DNA from: Solirubrobacter phytolaccae
Lineage (GTDB): Bacteria > Actinomycetota > Thermoleophilia > Solirubrobacterales > Solirubrobacteraceae
NCBI RefSeq assembly: GCF_027587195.1
Contig: NZ_JAPDDP010000030.1
Location: 1 to 64,000, forward strand
Reading direction: 5' to 3'
DNA: 64,000 nucleotides
Shown: in pieces, positions 27,313 through 44,176 of the stretch
How positions within the stretch are numbered: the stretch's first letter is position 1
Layout: the number at the start of each line of letters is the position of its first letter
The notes under the pieces: generated by a model
The model's input: the letters and a program-made list of their open reading frames with translations, nothing else
What the model was told of the DNA's origin: nothing
The model's database searches: none
Program-made: the position numbers and the translations under genes

Positions 27313-28147
27313 CGAACGTGTCGCAGCGGCGCGCGTCGCCGCCGCGGAAGCCGGTGTTGAACCACTTCTGGCGCGAGGCGGCCGAGCCGTGGGTCCAGCT
27401 CTCACGGTCCACGCGCCCGGTCGCGCGCTCCTGGATGCGGTCGTCGCCGACGGCGGCCGCCGCGTCCAGCCCGTCGGCGATGTCCTGGTCCGTCAGCTCC
27501 TCGATGAACTCGGTCTCGACGGCGTTCGCCGCCCACACGCCGGCGTAGCAGTCGGCCTGCAGCTCCAGCCGGACCGAGCCGGAGGTCTCGCCCTCGCGAT
27601 CACCGCCGACCTTCGCGTCCGTGCCGAGAAGGTGCTGGACGTGATGGCCGTACTCGTGCGCGATCACGTACGCCTCGGCGAACGGCCCACCCTGCGCGCC
27701 GAACCGCGAGCGCAGGTCGTCGTAGAAGTTCAGGTCGATGTAGATCTGCTGGTCGGCGGGGCAGTAGAACGGGCCGACCGCCGATGTCGCGCCGCCGCAA
27801 CCCGTCTGCGTCTGCCCGCTGAAGAAGTTCGTGGGCGCCTCGCGGTAGCCCTCGACGGTGTCGCCCCAGTAGGCCTGCACGGAGTTGACGACGCCGACGA
27901 TCCGGCAGTCCTCGTTCTGGTTGGCGTCCGCGCCGGTGCGGCAGCTCGACGAGAGCTGCTGGTTGTCCTCCAGCGACACCGAGTCCGTTCCGCCGCCGAC
28001 CGGCACGTCGACGCCGAGCAGCGCGAGCACGACGACCACCACGATCGTCCCCACACCGCCACCGACGGCGACGCCACGGCCGCCGCCACCACCGCGCCGG
28101 TCACGGACCTGGCCGGTGTCGAGCTTGGATCCTGGACGAAAGCGCAT
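27296..28147 (-). CDS. Neutral zinc metallopeptidase (YpfJ family)
   Basis: A 283-residue membrane-anchored protein. A Gly-rich cytoplasmic segment is followed by one helix (about 30-47) and an external domain with the zinc motif AHEYGHHVQHLLG near residue 160. The downstream Glu-containing stretch RLELQADCYAGVWA fits the family's third ligand region. Several Cys pairs suggest disulfides, for example in CRTGADANQNEDC. The physiological substrate of YpfJ proteins is unknown. The ATG at 28147 gives the conserved MRFRPG start; upstream codons lie in the divergent promoter. Confidence 0.88.
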   Translation of the reverse strand: MRFRPGSKLDTGQVRDRRGGGGGRGVAVGGGVGTIVVVVVLALLGVDVPVGGGTDSVSLEDNQQLSSSCRTGADANQNEDCRIVGVVNSVQAYWGDTVEGYREAPTNFFSGQTQTGCGGATSAVGPFYCPADQQIYIDLNFYDDLRSRFGAQGGPFAEAYVIAHEYGHHVQHLLGTDAKVGGDREGETSGSVRLELQADCYAGVWAANAVETEFIEELTDQDIADGLDAAAAVGDDRIQERATGRVDRESWTHGSAASRQKWFNTGFRGGDARRCDTFATNAL

Positions 28148-28217
28148 GCGAACCGCGTCCTTCCCGGCCGCGAGGCGAACCACGCATCGGGTCTGGATGA
28201 CCGCGCGCCGAGCGGGG

Positions 28218-28223
28218 TAGGGC
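28218..28223 (+). promoter_or_regulatory. Putative -10 element for the CDGSH gene at 28230
   Basis: TAGGGC lies 6 bases before the GTG, a weak match to the recurrent leaderless pattern. No Shine-Dalgarno is visible. Confidence 0.3.
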
Positions 28224-28229
28224 CGGCAT

Positions 28230-28448
28230 GTGACCGAACCTTCCATCACCGTCTATCGCGACGGCCCGTTGCTGCTCCGCGGGGACGTCCAGATCGTCGA
28301 TCAGGACGGCAACGTGATCGAGCCCGGCCGTGAGAAGACCGTCGCGCTGTGTCGCTGCGGCAAGTCCCGGATGCGGCCGTTCTGCGACGGCACGCACAAC
28401 GTCATCCGGTTTCGAGCGCCCGGCGCGCAGGAGCGCGGACGGGAGTGA
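28230..28448 (+). CDS. CDGSH iron-sulfur domain protein
   Basis: A 72-residue protein with the signature CRCGKSRMRPFCDGTH: Cys41, Cys43, Cys52 and His56 bind a [2Fe-2S] cluster. The N-terminal ~35 residues form a beta-rich cap. It is soluble, unlike the mitochondrial forms. It probably acts in electron or cluster transfer. Its 3' end overlaps the carboxylate-amine ligase gene on the other strand by 47 bases, and a diiron oxygenase-like gene follows, so all three may serve one process. Confidence 0.92.
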   Translation: MTEPSITVYRDGPLLLRGDVQIVDQDGNVIEPGREKTVALCRCGKSRMRPFCDGTHNVIRFRAPGAQERGRE

Positions 28449-29481
28449 GGAAGCGGTCGGCGAGATACGCCGCCGCGCCTTCCACGCCCACCGCGCGCTG
28501 TCGCAGCGCCCCGTTGCGGATGACCATGCGCGGGACCTGCGCGAGCTCGTCCGCGCAGCCGATCCGCTCGGCGACGGGCATGAGCGTCTCGACCCGCTCG
28601 AGCAGGACGTAGCGCACCGGGCGTTCCTCGCCGCTGTCGTAGTCCTTGAACGTCGCCTCGACGCCGTCGCGCAGCGCCGCCCAGCGGTTCTCGCCAATCT
28701 TCCACGACGGCACCACCGGCCGCTCCTCCTGCTCGGCCAGCCAGGCGACGAGCGCGTGCGCGTAGGCGGTCACCGCCGCGGTCTCCTCGAGCGTCGTCTG
28801 CGCGTCGCAGACGCGGATCTCGAGCGTGCCGAACGTCAAGTGCGGCCGCAGTTCCCACCACCAGGAGCCGGGCTCGGGCACGGCCCAGGCCAGCGCGTCC
28901 GCGTAGGCGTCCCAGGACTCGAAGGCGGGCGGGACGTTCTGGCGCGGGAGCAGCCCGTTGATGAGCGGGCGCACGGACGCGAAACCGGTGTCGCGCCCGG
29001 CGTGGAACGGCGCGTTGGCCGCGAGCGCCGCCAGCTCGGGCAGGTAGCCGCGCAGCGCGTTGTAGACCGCGAGCGAGCGCTCCGCGGTGCCGACGGCGAC
29101 GTGCACCTGCAGCGCGCACACGAGCTGCGCGCGGGCGACGTCGCCGTAGCGCGCGAGGATGTGCTCGTAGCGCTCGTCCGTGTTGAGCTCGCCGAGCGGG
29201 GCGGCGAAGGGATGGACGCCCGCGACGCCGAGCCGCGCGATCCCGTCCGCGGCGTCCGCGGCCGCCTGGCGCGCGTCGGCGAGCGCGCTGATCGCCGCCC
29301 CCACGGTGGCCGTGGGCGGCGTGTTGAGCTCGAGCTGCGAAGCGGGCAGCTCCAGCTTGGCGTCGGGGATCCGTTGGGCCACCGGCGCCAGGTCGAGCGT
29401 CGCCGGATCCAGGAGCATGACCTCCTCCTCGAGCCCGACGGTCAGCGGCTCGTCCGTCTCGAACGCGTCGCGGAGCGTCAC
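28402..29481 (-). CDS. Carboxylate-amine ligase, GCS2/YbdK family (copy 1)
   Basis: A 359-residue ATP-grasp-like ligase related to plant-type glutamate-cysteine ligase. Landmarks are TVGLEEEVMLLDP near residue 13, LQVHVAVG near residue 125, WWWELRPHLTFGTLEIRVCDAQ near residue 210 and ENRWAALRDG near residue 264. YbdK-type members have weak glutamate-cysteine ligase activity; the true substrates are mostly unknown. The GTG at 29481 overlaps the stop of the diiron-protein gene (GTGA), so the two are translationally coupled. A paralogue is at 43043-44176. Confidence 0.85.
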   Translation of the reverse strand: MTLRDAFETDEPLTVGLEEEVMLLDPATLDLAPVAQRIPDAKLELPASQLELNTPPTATVGAAISALADARQAAADAADGIARLGVAGVHPFAAPLGELNTDERYEHILARYGDVARAQLVCALQVHVAVGTAERSLAVYNALRGYLPELAALAANAPFHAGRDTGFASVRPLINGLLPRQNVPPAFESWDAYADALAWAVPEPGSWWWELRPHLTFGTLEIRVCDAQTTLEETAAVTAYAHALVAWLAEQEERPVVPSWKIGENRWAALRDGVEATFKDYDSGEERPVRYVLLERVETLMPVAERIGCADELAQVPRMVIRNGALRQRAVGVEGAAAYLADRFLTPVRAPARRALETG

Positions 29482-30473
29482 GGAAGCGCCAGCACGCTTC
29501 CGTCGTGCAGTGACGATTCGCCGGCCTGGAACCGCTCCATCACGTGCCGTGCCCAGCGCCCGTCGATCGCCGTGAGCGCGCGGGCGCCCCACAGCACGTC
29601 GGCGCCCAGCTGTCGGTCCTGCAAGGCGAGCCCGCCCGCGAGGTCGACGGCGGCGATGCTCTCGTGCACGGCGTCGGCGACCACGTGCACGTCGAAGAAC
29701 ACGACGGCGTCCTCGCGCTCCCAGCCGAGCCGGCGCAGGCCGCTGCCGTAGCGGCGGTTGGGCACCGAGGAGGTCATCTCGAACAGCGCGAGGTGGCCGA
29801 CGATCGCGCCGCGGCGGGATCGATGCAGGCCCATCCACGACATCAGGTTCACGGTGGCGAGCGTCACGCCGGGGATCCGATCCAGGTAGGCGCCGTACGT
29901 CGAGTCGAGCCCGACGGCGTCCATCGTACGCGCGAACAGCTGCGCGTGAACCTGCTCGGGGCGGCCCTCGCCGTACTCGTCGGCCTGGATCTCGACCAGC
30001 GCGGCCTTCGGCGCGCCGTGCAGGCGCGGGATCGCCCAGGAGTGCGGATCGGCTTCCTTGAGCTGGTAGGCGGAGCGGTGGATCAGGAACTCGAGCACCT
30101 GCTCGCGCGTGGCGTCGCGCTCGATGAACGTGGAGACCGACGGCGCGTCGTCGGCCTGCATCAGCTCGCGCAGCTCGACGTCGATCTGCGCGGGGTCGGG
30201 CGGCTCGCCGGGCGTGCCCGCCAGCGCGCGCACGTCGGCCTCGAAGGCGGCTTCCAGGACGGCGCGGAACGCCAGCAGCCCCGGATTCCACTCCCAGGCG
30301 TCGTCGACGCCGTCGAACCCGCGGTAGTGCAGCTCGTAGCAGCAGTACAGGGCGAGCTGCAGGTCCTCGAAATCGATCGGGTCCGTGGGGAGCTCGATCG
30401 CGTCTGGTGGGTGCCGGAGGGCCGTCAGCAGCACCTCGCTCACGGGCCCGCGCGGCTGGGGAAGGGTGGCCAT
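29478..30473 (-). CDS. Haem-oxygenase-like diiron protein (iron-containing redox enzyme family)
   Basis: A 331-residue all-helical protein. It has the spaced Glu/His pattern of haem-oxygenase-like diiron enzymes: YELHYRGF near residue 46, FLIHRSAYQLKEADPHSWA near residue 129, EIQADEYGEGRPEQVH near residue 162 and VVFFDVHVVADAVHE near residue 260. Related enzymes oxidise amino-acid-derived substrates with O2. The specific reaction here is unknown. It is coupled by GTGA to the carboxylate-amine ligase, which could make or modify its substrate. The ATG at 30473 is followed directly by the divergent SIMPL gene region. Confidence 0.82.
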   Translation of the reverse strand: MATLPQPRGPVSEVLLTALRHPPDAIELPTDPIDFEDLQLALYCCYELHYRGFDGVDDAWEWNPGLLAFRAVLEAAFEADVRALAGTPGEPPDPAQIDVELRELMQADDAPSVSTFIERDATREQVLEFLIHRSAYQLKEADPHSWAIPRLHGAPKAALVEIQADEYGEGRPEQVHAQLFARTMDAVGLDSTYGAYLDRIPGVTLATVNLMSWMGLHRSRRGAIVGHLALFEMTSSVPNRRYGSGLRRLGWEREDAVVFFDVHVVADAVHESIAAVDLAGGLALQDRQLGADVLWGARALTAIDGRWARHVMERFQAGESSLHDGSVLALP

Positions 30474-30563
30474 GCGGAGGCCCTACCCATCCCGCCGAGG
30501 TTTCCCCACGCCGCCGATCGGTCACAAAACCGCTTCCCCGCGACACCAATGATCAGGTATCGA

Positions 30564-31479: not shown

Positions 31480-31548
31480 GTCCCTGGTATCGGACCGCAC
31501 CGTCAAGTTGGGGTGGGCGGTTCCTCAAGAACCAGTCAAGCTACGGCT

Positions 31549-32352
31549 GTGCACGAGGGTGGAAAGCGGGTCTCGTGGGTCGAGCTCTACCTCGACCTCG
31601 TGGGGGTGACCACGGCGACGACGACCGGCCGGAGCACCTGCTGTTCCTCGCCGGATCGATCCCGATCGGCGTTGCCGCGGTGGCGATCGAGCCCGCCGCG
31701 CACGGCGACCCCGCGGTGTTCGCGGGTGCGCTCGCCGCGGTGCGCGTGCTCCTGGCGCTGGCGCACGGCGGCGCCCGTCGCGAGCACCGGCTCGCGGCCT
31801 TCGCGCCCAAGGATCCACGCGAGGCGCTGGACCCGCACCACTTCGCCGAGCGCTTCGGCCTGTTCTGATCATCCTGCTCGGCGAGGTGCTGGTCGAGGCG
31901 GGGCAGGCGCCGGTCGAGGGCACGTCGGGCTGGGTCGCGCTCGCCGCCGCGATGGTGCTGGCCGGAGCGCTCTGGTGGCTGTACTTCGACTCGTCGGCGG
32001 CGATCAACCTGCGCGTGCTCGAGCTCGCCGGCGGGTCGCCGACGCTGGCGCGGGCGACGTTCGCCGTCGGGCACATGATCCCGGCCTTCGCGCTGATCGG
32101 GATCGCGGCGGGCGTCGGCCTGCTGCTCGAGGAGGAGCCGCCGGACTTCGCCTACTTCCTCGTGGCGACCGGCGCCGGGCTCTACATGCTCGGCACCCAC
32201 GCGTTCCTGCGCGCCCGCCGCGGGCCGTTCGCCGCGCGCATCCTGATCGTGATCGCCACGTTCAACCTCGGCCGCCTGCACGAGGTGTTCTCGCCGCACG
32301 AGTACGTCGTGTTCGTCGCGGCGTGGGTGACCGTGTGCGCGGCCCTATCGAC
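31549..32352 (+). pseudogene. Frameshifted LtrA-family gene
   Basis: Homology to LtrA runs through three reading frames. The N-terminal KRVSWVELYLDLVGV is in the frame of GTG 31549. The middle, LAGSIPIGVAAVAIEP to HFAERFGLF, is in a second frame ending with TGA near 31866. The rest, VLVEAGQAPVEG through HEVFSPHEYVVFVAAWVTV, is in a third frame. The intact paralogue at 23870 reads HFAERFGLVLIIALGES at the equivalent place, so a single base appears missing near 31866; another indel, or a larger loss, lies near 31600. It is probably inactive unless these are sequencing errors. Confidence 0.75.
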
Positions 32353-32879
32353 GCAGTTCGGCGCGGACGGCCATGTGGGCGCGGCCGAGAAGGTTGGTGC
32401 CGGCGAAGCGCCCCGTCGCGGGTGCGGATGCCCCAGATCGCGTCGGTGGGTGAGTCCTCGAGGATCAGCACGTCGCCGGTCGCGACGAGCCTGGCGGCGT
32501 AGTCGGGGTTGGCGGCGTACCAGTGGCGGAGGATCTCGACCATCACGCCGAGCTTGACCTCGTCCCAGTCGGGGCGCAGCTGGACCTTGCGTCCGCGCGC
32601 CTTCGCCGTCTTGGGCTCCTTGGCGGTGCGGATCGACTCGTGCTCGTCGTGGGTCACCGTCTTGTGCGCCATCAGCGCGTGCTCCTTCGACGGGTAGGTG
32701 GTCGTGCGGCCCGTGTGCGGGTCGGGCATCTTCACCGGGCCGCCCTCGAAGTTGCTCAGCCACGCCCACTCGGGCGCGCTGCGGCGGCCGTAGAAGACGA
32801 CGGCGTCCTCCGGCAGCGCGTCCAGCTCGACCGCGGGCGGCGCGTCGAACGGCTCGAAGCTCAGCTCGGGCGCCGGCAT
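32345..32879 (-). pseudogene. NADAR (YbiA-like) gene with a C-terminal frameshift
   Basis: The reading frame from ATG 32879 gives a NADAR-fold protein: VVFYGRRSAPEWAWLSNF near residue 27, YPSKEHALMAHKT near residue 62, and ILEDSPTDAIWGIRTRDG near residue 148. Family members cleave N-glycosidic bonds in riboflavin-pathway intermediates or ADP-ribose-like compounds. After DGA the family ending is found one frame over: FAGTNLLGRAHMAVRAELRR then TAG at 32345-32347. The junction GCGC at 32408-32411 has one base too many. As read, the protein runs on without its conserved C-terminus. It could be a real mutation or a base-call error. Confidence 0.75.
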
Positions 32880-43042: not shown

Positions 43043-44176
43043 TCAGCCCACCGGCGTCAGCTCACCGCGCGTCGCGCCGACGTTCGCCGTCTCGTTCGCC
43101 AGGCGCCGCAGCATCAGCTCCAACCCGCCCTCCTGCGCGTTCATCCGCTGGCGCGCGGCGCCGTTGCCGCGCTCGAGCAGCCGGTGCACGAGCATCAGCT
43201 CCTCCCAGCAGCCGAGGTCGGCGGCGTACGCGCTCGCGATCCCGACCGCGTTGTAGGCCACCTCGCGCACGGGCCGGAGCGAGCCGTCGAGCGCGAGCTT
43301 CGCGTCCAGGCCGTCGCGGGTCGCGCGGAAGCTCAGCTCGCGCAGCACCTCGGGGCCGGGGACGCGGCTCGGCGGCGAGCTCGCCTCGTGCACCGCCAGG
43401 CAGTGGACGAGCGCGACGAGCGCGACCAGGTCCTCGAGCGAGGACTGCGCGTCGAGCGCGCGGATCTCGAGCGTGCCGAGCCGCGGGTGCGGGCGCAGGT
43501 CCCACCACAGGTAGGAGTCGTCCGGGCACTCGCCGAGCGCGCGCAGGTCCTCGACCGTGGCCGCGTAGTCGGCATAGTCGGCGAACGCGCGCGGGATGCC
43601 GGACCGCGGCAGCGAGTTGCAGATCACCGAGCGCGCGCTCGCGAGGCCGGAGTCTCGCCCGTACCAGTAGGGCGAGTTCGCGCCGAGCGCCTGCAGCAGC
43701 GGCACCCACGCGCGCATGCCGTTGGCGGCGCGCACCGCGGTCTCGCCGTCGGGCATGCCGACGTGCACGTGGACGCCGCAGTGCGCGGTCTGGCGCATGA
43801 GCGAGCGCAGGGAGTCGCCGATCAGCTCGTAGCGCTCCCCGCCGCGCAGCTCGACGTCCGCGAAGCGCGCGAGCGGGTGCACGCCCGCGCCGACCAGCGG
43901 CGTGACCTCGACCAGCTCGGTGCGCAGCGCGCCGAGGATGCCGACCGCCTCGCCGGCGTCGTCGCACACCGGCGTCCGCAGCTCCAGCACGCCGTCCGTC
44001 ATCTCGCCGGTCACGTGCTCGGGCGCGAGCGCGGCTCGCTCCAGCAGGGTCTCCGTCCCGCCGCACGGCAGCAGCGTGCGGGGGTGGACCGCGATCAGCT
44101 CTTCCTCGACCCCGAGGCTGTAACGAGCGGATCCCTTGAAGCTCAATGGCGAAGTCACGGCGGAAGTAATCGGCAT
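43043..44176 (-). CDS. Carboxylate-amine ligase, GCS2/YbdK family (copy 2)
   Basis: A 377-residue ligase of the plant-type glutamate-cysteine ligase superfamily. Landmarks are SLGVEEELIAVHP near residue 20, GVHVHVGMPDGE near residue 133, WWDLRPHPRLGTLEIRALDAQ near residue 223 and VAYNAVGIASAYAADLGC near residue 308. It is a diverged paralogue of the gene at 28402-29481. Spacing to ogt is 14 bases, so it may be the first gene of that operon. The substrate is unknown. Confidence 0.85.
   Translation of the reverse strand: MPITSAVTSPLSFKGSARYSLGVEEELIAVHPRTLLPCGGTETLLERAALAPEHVTGEMTDGVLELRTPVCDDAGEAVGILGALRTELVEVTPLVGAGVHPLARFADVELRGGERYELIGDSLRSLMRQTAHCGVHVHVGMPDGETAVRAANGMRAWVPLLQALGANSPYWYGRDSGLASARSVICNSLPRSGIPRAFADYADYAATVEDLRALGECPDDSYLWWDLRPHPRLGTLEIRALDAQSSLEDLVALVALVHCLAVHEASSPPSRVPGPEVLRELSFRATRDGLDAKLALDGSLRPVREVAYNAVGIASAYAADLGCWEELMLVHRLLERGNGAARQRMNAQEGGLELMLRRLANETANVGATRGELTPVG

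What the first reader, a model, noticed from the sequence alone, without database searches (positions are those of the whole stretch)
28230..30473. CDGSH / carboxylate-amine ligase / diiron oxygenase-like cassette
A CDGSH iron-sulfur protein, a GCS2-type amide-forming ligase and a haem-oxygenase-like diiron protein lie together. The last two are coupled by GTGA and the first overlaps the ligase tail to tail. An amide-bond-forming enzyme, an O2-activating diiron enzyme and a small electron carrier could form a short pathway that makes and oxidises an amino-acid conjugate. The product is unknown.
Basis: inference. Interest (0 to 1): 0.62.

Follow-up and report, generated by a model that had tools for sequence, protein, structure and literature searches.

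The report
Oxygen enzyme with dedicated iron-sulfur partner
A soil bacterium carries a compact, conserved gene set pairing an oxygen-activating di-iron enzyme with its own subfamily of small iron-sulfur protein and an amide-forming (elsewhere sugar-transferring) enzyme, which probably makes an unknown small molecule and may show how this enzyme class gets its electrons.

Summary
The three genes are real and correctly placed: CDGSH (28230-28448 +), a YbdK/GCS2-type ligase (28402-29481 -) and a haem-oxygenase-like diiron protein (HDO, 29478-30473 -). Their linkage is not chance: 40 of 44 HDO genomes in the order, and 23 of 34 in the phylum sample, have CDGSH within 3 kb. Of 79 relatives' loci, 70 have CDGSH, 39 GCS2, 35 all three. 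HDO-linked CDGSH proteins separate from unlinked ones in a tree (17 of 18). The HDO model matches N-oxygenases best (HrmI, Z 33.5), with seven SznF-type ligand positions invariant in 45 sequences. Best reading: an N-oxygenase with a dedicated NEET-type partner, making a modified amino-acid metabolite. Chemistry, substrate and product are inferred; a stress role is only hinted at. New variant of a known kind.

The parts
29478..30473 (-). Haem-oxygenase-like diiron protein (HDO), 331 aa; predicted N-oxygenase; predicted metal ligands E140, E166, H176, E232, H263, D267, H270
   Evidence: PF14518 184 bits; model pLDDT 96, best structural match HrmI Z 33.5; ligands align with SznF E189/E215/H225/E281/H311/D315/H318 and are invariant in 45 of 45 sequences
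28402..29481 (-). YbdK/GCS2-type carboxylate-amine ligase, 359 aa, GTGA-coupled to the HDO
   Evidence: PF04107 127 bits, TIGR02050 206.5 bits over cut-off; model pLDDT 93 matches YbdK and glutamate-cysteine ligases; tree groups it with the other Thermoleophilia cassette ligases
28230..28448 (+). Small CDGSH (NEET-type) [2Fe-2S] protein, 72 aa, convergent with the ligase, predicted redox or iron partner of the HDO
   Evidence: PF09360 69.5 bits; within 3 kb of the HDO in 40 of 44 HDO genomes of the order; separate subfamily from unlinked CDGSH
28171..28229 (.). Deletion scar: both congeners carry a HemK2-type methyltransferase gene between CDGSH and the zinc peptidase, lost here with about 0.7 kb
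   Evidence: no methyltransferase match in the window; 77.8% and 100% matches to the L032 protein in L128 and L129; window 27900-28170 and 28230-28460 align to L128 8235-7966 and 7239-7009
28215..28220 (+). GGGTAG motif just upstream of the CDGSH start (possible -10 element of a stress-type sigma factor; function inferred)
30483..30488 (-). GGGTAG motif just upstream of the HDO start; inside the same 10-mer GGGTAGGGCC as the CDGSH one, the only two copies in the window; GGGTAGGGC also seen upstream of the HDO in L128, L129 and L034

Best explanation
The locus is a compact biosynthetic module whose core is an HDO-family diiron N-oxygenase and a dedicated CDGSH [2Fe-2S] protein. The HDO binds two irons with a SznF-type 3 His/4 carboxylate set, activates O2 and oxygenates a nitrogen of an amino-acid-derived substrate. 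The CDGSH protein re-reduces the diiron site between turnovers (or keeps it loaded with iron). The ATP-dependent YbdK-type ligase makes an amide (gamma-glutamyl type) on the substrate or product; in many relatives a HemK2-type methyltransferase adds a methyl group, and in other lineages a glycosyltransferase takes the ligase's place. Shown: families, conserved ligand positions, folds, linkage, subfamily separation, the methyltransferase loss. Inferred: N-oxygenation, electron transfer, order of steps, product.
For: HDO-CDGSH linkage in 40 of 44 HDO genomes in the order, 23 of 34 in the phylum sample, 70 of 79 loci, in both orientations and on both sides. HDO-linked CDGSH proteins group apart from unlinked ones (17 of 18, support 98/96). 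The HDO model is nearest to HrmI (Z 33.5, rmsd 2.2, 305 residues), SznF (29.6) and RohS (27.3), then FlcD (25.7); CADD, BesC and UndA come well below (20.2 or less). Seven ligand positions invariant in 45 of 45. Precedent: MboA needs its partner MboB and mediators cannot replace it (PMC13185094, passages). GCS2 with methyltransferase in 31 of 39 loci against 3 of 40 without GCS2. Natural methyltransferase-CDGSH fusion in L081.
Against: 11 of 34 HDO genomes in the phylum sample have no CDGSH nearby and 6 of those none anywhere, so the partner is not obligatory for the family. The fusion and the operon overlap tie CDGSH to the methyltransferase rather than to the HDO. The ligase and methyltransferase are dispensable: L034 has neither, and the window and L033 lack the methyltransferase. 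Structural likeness to N-oxygenases does not show N-oxygenation. MboB is a flavin/Fe2S2 reductase, not a CDGSH protein. The 79 loci are the best matches to the query and related to each other, so the Fisher values are not independent tests.
Confidence: 0.4

Rival explanations
1. The HDO is a stress protein that limits iron- or peroxide-driven damage (one possibility raised for Acinetobacter DtpC); CDGSH handles iron or Fe-S clusters under the same stress and the ligase adds to a thiol or gamma-glutamyl buffer. No dedicated product.
For: DtpC is an HDO-domain protein needed, redundantly with KatE, for desiccation survival, and E143A, H153A and H232A each abolish its effect (PMC13232832, abstract, introduction and passages). 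Some loci sit beside sigma, STAS, DUF892 or MpsC genes. GGGTA[TCG] near the start codon: 31 of 150 cassette genes against 41 of 468 other genes (p 1.4e-4).
Against: A matched control showed no clear excess of stress families: Sigma70_r2 in 4 of 150 neighbours and not among the first 25 families listed (each with 2 or more members) for 149 control proteins; Sigma70_r4_2 in 3 of each. The full sigma-type pattern GTTT...GGGTA was not enriched (2 of 134 against 11 of 434). The DtpC authors themselves leave a biosynthetic role open.
Confidence: 0.25
2. Conserved gene neighbourhood without one pathway: HDO and CDGSH act together, while the ligase, methyltransferase and glycosyltransferase are separate functions that travel with them.
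For: 19 of 79 loci have HDO and CDGSH only; the ligase is dispensable and exchangeable; the genome has a ligase of the same clade elsewhere (L126) with none of the cassette families among the neighbours scanned.
Against: GCS2 and methyltransferase are tightly associated with each other (31 of 39 against 3 of 40) and GCS2 and glycosyltransferase nearly exclude each other (1 locus with both, a distant GCS2), which fits alternative tailoring of one product; ligase and HDO are translationally coupled here.
Confidence: 0.2
3. A protein- or peptide-modifying system: the HemK2/MTQ2-type methyltransferase and a GCS2 ligase (fold shared with Pup ligase) modify a protein or peptide that the HDO oxidises.
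For: The methyltransferase passes the HemK2/MTQ2 cut-off (TIGR00537 98.4 and 119.2 against 87) and has an invariant NPPY motif; PafA and Dop are among the weaker fold matches of the ligase.
Against: No small conserved peptide gene was found among the recurrent neighbours (genes of 60 aa or more only); characterised HDOs named in the papers read act on amino acids, short peptides, fatty acids or their own residues.
Confidence: 0.1

Closest known systems
HrmI (lysine N-oxygenase, HDO)
   Same: Same fold over 305 of 331 residues, Z 33.5, 18% identity; metal-ligand motif region aligns
   Different: HrmI is described as 3H/3C (PMC13108848, passage); this family has an invariant extra Glu (E232); HrmI's cluster partners were not examined here
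SznF HDO domain (N-methylarginine N-oxygenase)
   Same: All seven ligand positions match; Z 29.6
   Different: No C-terminal cupin domain; different neighbours
MboA/MboB (mangotoxin HDO with dedicated redox partner)
   Same: HDO encoded with a [2Fe-2S] protein and amide-forming ligases (PMC13185094, passages)
   Different: MboB is an NAD(P)H-flavin-Fe2S2 reductase; MboC and MboD are amino acid ligases of another kind; MboA is a desaturase
YbdK family carboxylate-amine ligase
   Same: TIGR02050 over cut-off; TM-score 0.84 to the Salmonella homologue 1tt4 and 0.82 to 1r8g
   Different: Forms a clade apart from 5 of 6 paralogues of the same genome
DtpC of Acinetobacter baumannii
   Same: HDO-domain protein, protective role shown by others (PMC13232832)
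   Different: Its operon partner is a catalase; sequence relation untested

Membership tests
HDO superfamily (PF14518) | Haem-oxygenase-like helical fold | tested here: met
   PF14518 184 bits; Z 33.5 to HrmI
HDO superfamily (PF14518) | 3 His/3 carboxylate metal ligands (3H/4C in the SznF subset) | tested here: met
   seven positions invariant in 45 of 45
HDO superfamily (PF14518) | Bound diiron (or Fe/Mn) cluster and O2 activation | not testable with these tools
   needs protein
HDO N-oxygenases (HrmI, SznF, RohS) | Nearest structural group | tested here: met
   top four entries HrmI, then SznF and RohS
HDO N-oxygenases (HrmI, SznF, RohS) | Oxygenation of a substrate nitrogen | not testable with these tools
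   needs assay
CDGSH / NEET proteins (PF09360) | C-X-C-X2-(S/T)-X3-P-X-C-D-G-(S/T)-H motif | tested here: met
   CRCGKSRMRPFCDGTH
CDGSH / NEET proteins (PF09360) | [2Fe-2S] cluster with 3 Cys-1 His ligation | not testable with these tools
   needs spectroscopy
YbdK-type carboxylate-amine ligase (TIGR02050) | Curated score | tested here: met
   206.5 against 176.4
YbdK-type carboxylate-amine ligase (TIGR02050) | ATP-dependent amide formation | not testable with these tools
   needs assay
EgtA of ergothioneine synthesis | Curated score TIGR03444 | tested here: not met
   27 against 370.8
HemK2/MTQ2 methyltransferase (relatives only) | TIGR00537 cut-off | tested here: met
   98.4 and 119.2 against 87 in L032 and L113; gene absent in the window
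MboA/MboB-type HDO-redox pair | Partner is a flavin/Fe2S2 NAD(P)H reductase | tested here: not met
   the 72-aa partner matches only PF09360
DtpC-type protective HDO | Sequence kinship to DtpC | not tested

The most novel reading that the evidence does not exclude
HDO oxygenases across Actinobacteria have a co-evolving NEET-type [2Fe-2S] partner, the first of its kind for the superfamily, in a self-contained module with interchangeable tailoring (amide ligase plus N-methyltransferase, or glycosyltransferase) that makes an undescribed N-oxygenated, possibly stress-protective metabolite.
Probability: 0.3. Interest if true: 0.8.

Novelty: new variant of a known kind. Interest (0 to 1): 0.56.

Why it matters
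How HDO enzymes are re-reduced in the cell is open: a 2026 paper calls MboAB possibly the first characterised dedicated HDO-redox partner pair (PMC13185094, passage), and a 2026 review says HDOs studied to date need no protein effector (PMC13108848, passage). A dedicated, conserved CDGSH partner would be a second, different answer, would give a bacterial NEET protein a concrete job, and points to an unknown, widespread actinobacterial metabolite. It is directly testable with a few small soluble proteins.

Tried and rejected
Rejected: chance adjacency. Rejected: a 'no known family' cluster of long ORFs in 17 loci, which was antisense to the glycosyltransferase gene. Rejected: weak 'GT' hits below 100 bits, which I take as an artefact of a seed overlapping the CDGSH gene on the other strand; one search uses alignment profiles instead, with cut-offs of 60 bits for GCS2 and HDO, 40 for MT, 80 for GT and 20 for CDGSH. 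Rejected as a member: EgtA. Weak and not relied on: sigma-B type promoters (the full pattern was not enriched; GGGTA alone was) and a stress-gene neighbourhood. Weak: an arginine-derived substrate, suggested only by one dimethylargininase gene between GCS2 and HDO in Kitasatospora (L113; 386.7 against 300; 1 locus). Literature searches that found no paper joining CDGSH and this enzyme family: (listings only); one search did not return even the DtpC paper, probably because of hyphenation, so absence is weak evidence. Viral and metagenome contigs were not searched. Rows dropped: L064 (same strain as L032) from the tallies, 41 proteins (cassette genes and CDGSH matches) before the neighbour test; 2 of 152 case and 26 of 175 control proteins left out to fit the 150 limit. 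The 850-base cut was chosen after seeing the data.

Full report
Observation. CDGSH is 28230-28448 (+), the ligase 28402-29481 (-), the HDO 29478-30473 (-). Pfam and NCBIfam scores are far over the cut-offs. The GTGA coupling and the 47-base tail-to-tail overlap are exact. The window lies in a 7.74 Mb genome that has a single PF09360 gene and a single PF14518 gene, and these are the two neighbours here. GCS2 is not special by itself: the genome has 7 TIGR02050 copies and 117 of 121 genomes of the order have one. By kin the window is a Solirubrobacter (best named relatives; inference).

Linkage. In 121 genomes of the order, 44 have an HDO match at E 1e-10 or better and 63 have a CDGSH gene. In 40 of the 44, a CDGSH gene lies within 3 kb of the HDO; the 4 others have a short or weak HDO match. 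Of 94 CDGSH copies 40 are near an HDO, and 21 genomes have CDGSH without HDO, so CDGSH also has other uses. In 198 genomes of the phylum, 34 have the HDO and 23 of these have CDGSH within 3 kb; 11 do not, 6 of them having no CDGSH at all. In 79 distinct loci (the best 80 of 287 named matches, less one duplicate strain): CDGSH 70, GCS2 39, methyltransferase 34, glycosyltransferase 17; HDO, CDGSH and GCS2 together 35; HDO alone 3. CDGSH lies on either strand and either side of the HDO, and GCS2 before it, after it or on the other strand, so the set has been rearranged and kept.

The missing member. In the congener L032 the order is HDO, ligase, then CDGSH and a PF05175 methyltransferase on the other strand, overlapping by 4 bases. 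The methyltransferase passes the HemK2/MTQ2 cut-off, 25 aligned copies share an invariant NPPY motif (that this motif marks N-methyltransferases is recalled), and 31 of 39 loci with GCS2 have it against 3 of 40 without. In Conexibacter arvalis it is fused to CDGSH in one 364-aa frame (L081:6004-7098). In the window it is gone: 27900-28170 and 28230-28460 align to both sides of it in L128, leaving out about 0.7 kb, and the genome has only a weak 37-bit match elsewhere, itself a short PrmC-like methyltransferase. L033 and L034 also lack it.

The exchangeable slot. In 17 loci a protein of about 320-390 aa, often directly downstream of the HDO, has an invariant DDD motif and weak family-2 glycosyltransferase matches. 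GCS2 and this gene occur together in only 1 locus, L093, where the GCS2 is a distant one. This either-or pattern suggests alternative tailoring (inference).

Dedicated partner. I fetched 20 stretches with CDGSH copies not near an HDO (of 54 such copies, mostly the best scoring); 18 motif copies came out. In a tree with 70 linked ones, 17 of the 18 fall on one side of a branch (support 98/96) and 1 on a very long branch falls on the other. Only 70 columns were used, so finer forks are unresolved. The commonest linked motif is CRCGKSRMRPFCDGTH (11 of 70), the commonest unlinked one CRCGGSTTKPFCDGTH (9 of 18).

Structure. The HDO model (pLDDT 96) matches HrmI best (Z 33.5, rmsd 2.2, 305 residues, 18% identity), then SznF 29.6, RohS 27.3, 3bjd 26.5, FlcD 25.7, with CADD at 20.2, BesC 17.5 and UndA 16.6. 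E140, E166, H176, E232, H263, D267 and H270 align with SznF E189, E215, H225, E281, H311, D315 and H318 and are invariant in 45 of 45; that these SznF residues are the metal ligands is recalled, while the 3H/4C class of SznF is from PMC13108848 (passage). The ligase model (pLDDT 93) matches YbdK and glutamate-cysteine ligases. In the ligase tree the Thermoleophilia cassette ligases form a supported group apart from 5 of 6 paralogues of this genome; one paralogue (L126) falls inside it, and the ligases of L093, L102, L110 and L113 fall outside.

How it probably works. An N-oxygenase fed with electrons or iron by its CDGSH partner, acting with an amide ligase (and often a methyltransferase) on an amino-acid-derived molecule. 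Only the anatomy is shown. The closest working precedent is MboA with MboB, where mediators cannot replace the partner (PMC13185094, passages). DtpC shows that an HDO can matter for drying and oxidative stress (PMC13232832, abstract, introduction and passages); I looked for a stress signature here and found only hints: GGGTA[TCG] near starts in 31 of 150 against 41 of 468, but no enrichment of the full pattern and no clear excess of stress families against control regions.

Verdict. What is new is the combination and the dedicated CDGSH subfamily; each family is known. Searches that found no paper on it: (open-access library only).

Noticed in passing
window 31525-32434 (+): A homologue of an LtrA-like gene that is open in L128 matches here in pieces in different frames, so it looks frameshifted: a pseudogene or an assembly error.
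   Followed up: partly
window 43043-44146 (-): A second GCS2 ligase in the window, next to an AI-2E family transporter; it is outside the cassette clade (L124).
   Followed up: partly
L160:6589-7689 (G000 contig 77): A ligase of the cassette clade elsewhere in the genome, beside an epimerase and a GGDEF-EAL gene, without HDO or CDGSH.
   Followed up: partly
L113:5094-5915 (Kitasatospora plasmid): A gene passing the dimethylargininase cut-off sits between the ligase and the HDO; a possible hint of an arginine-derived substrate.
   Followed up: partly
window 28215 (+) and 30488 (-): The 10-mer GGGTAGGGCC occurs twice in the window, just upstream of the CDGSH and HDO starts.
   Followed up: partly
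L112 (Curtobacterium plasmid pW21): HDO and CDGSH genes overlap by 4 bases on a 62-kb plasmid, so the pair may move between cells.
   Followed up: no
L068: A record titled Bifidobacterium breve carries an HDO 62% identical to the window's and a ligase grouping with Solirubrobacteraceae; probably a misnamed metagenome bin.
   Followed up: no
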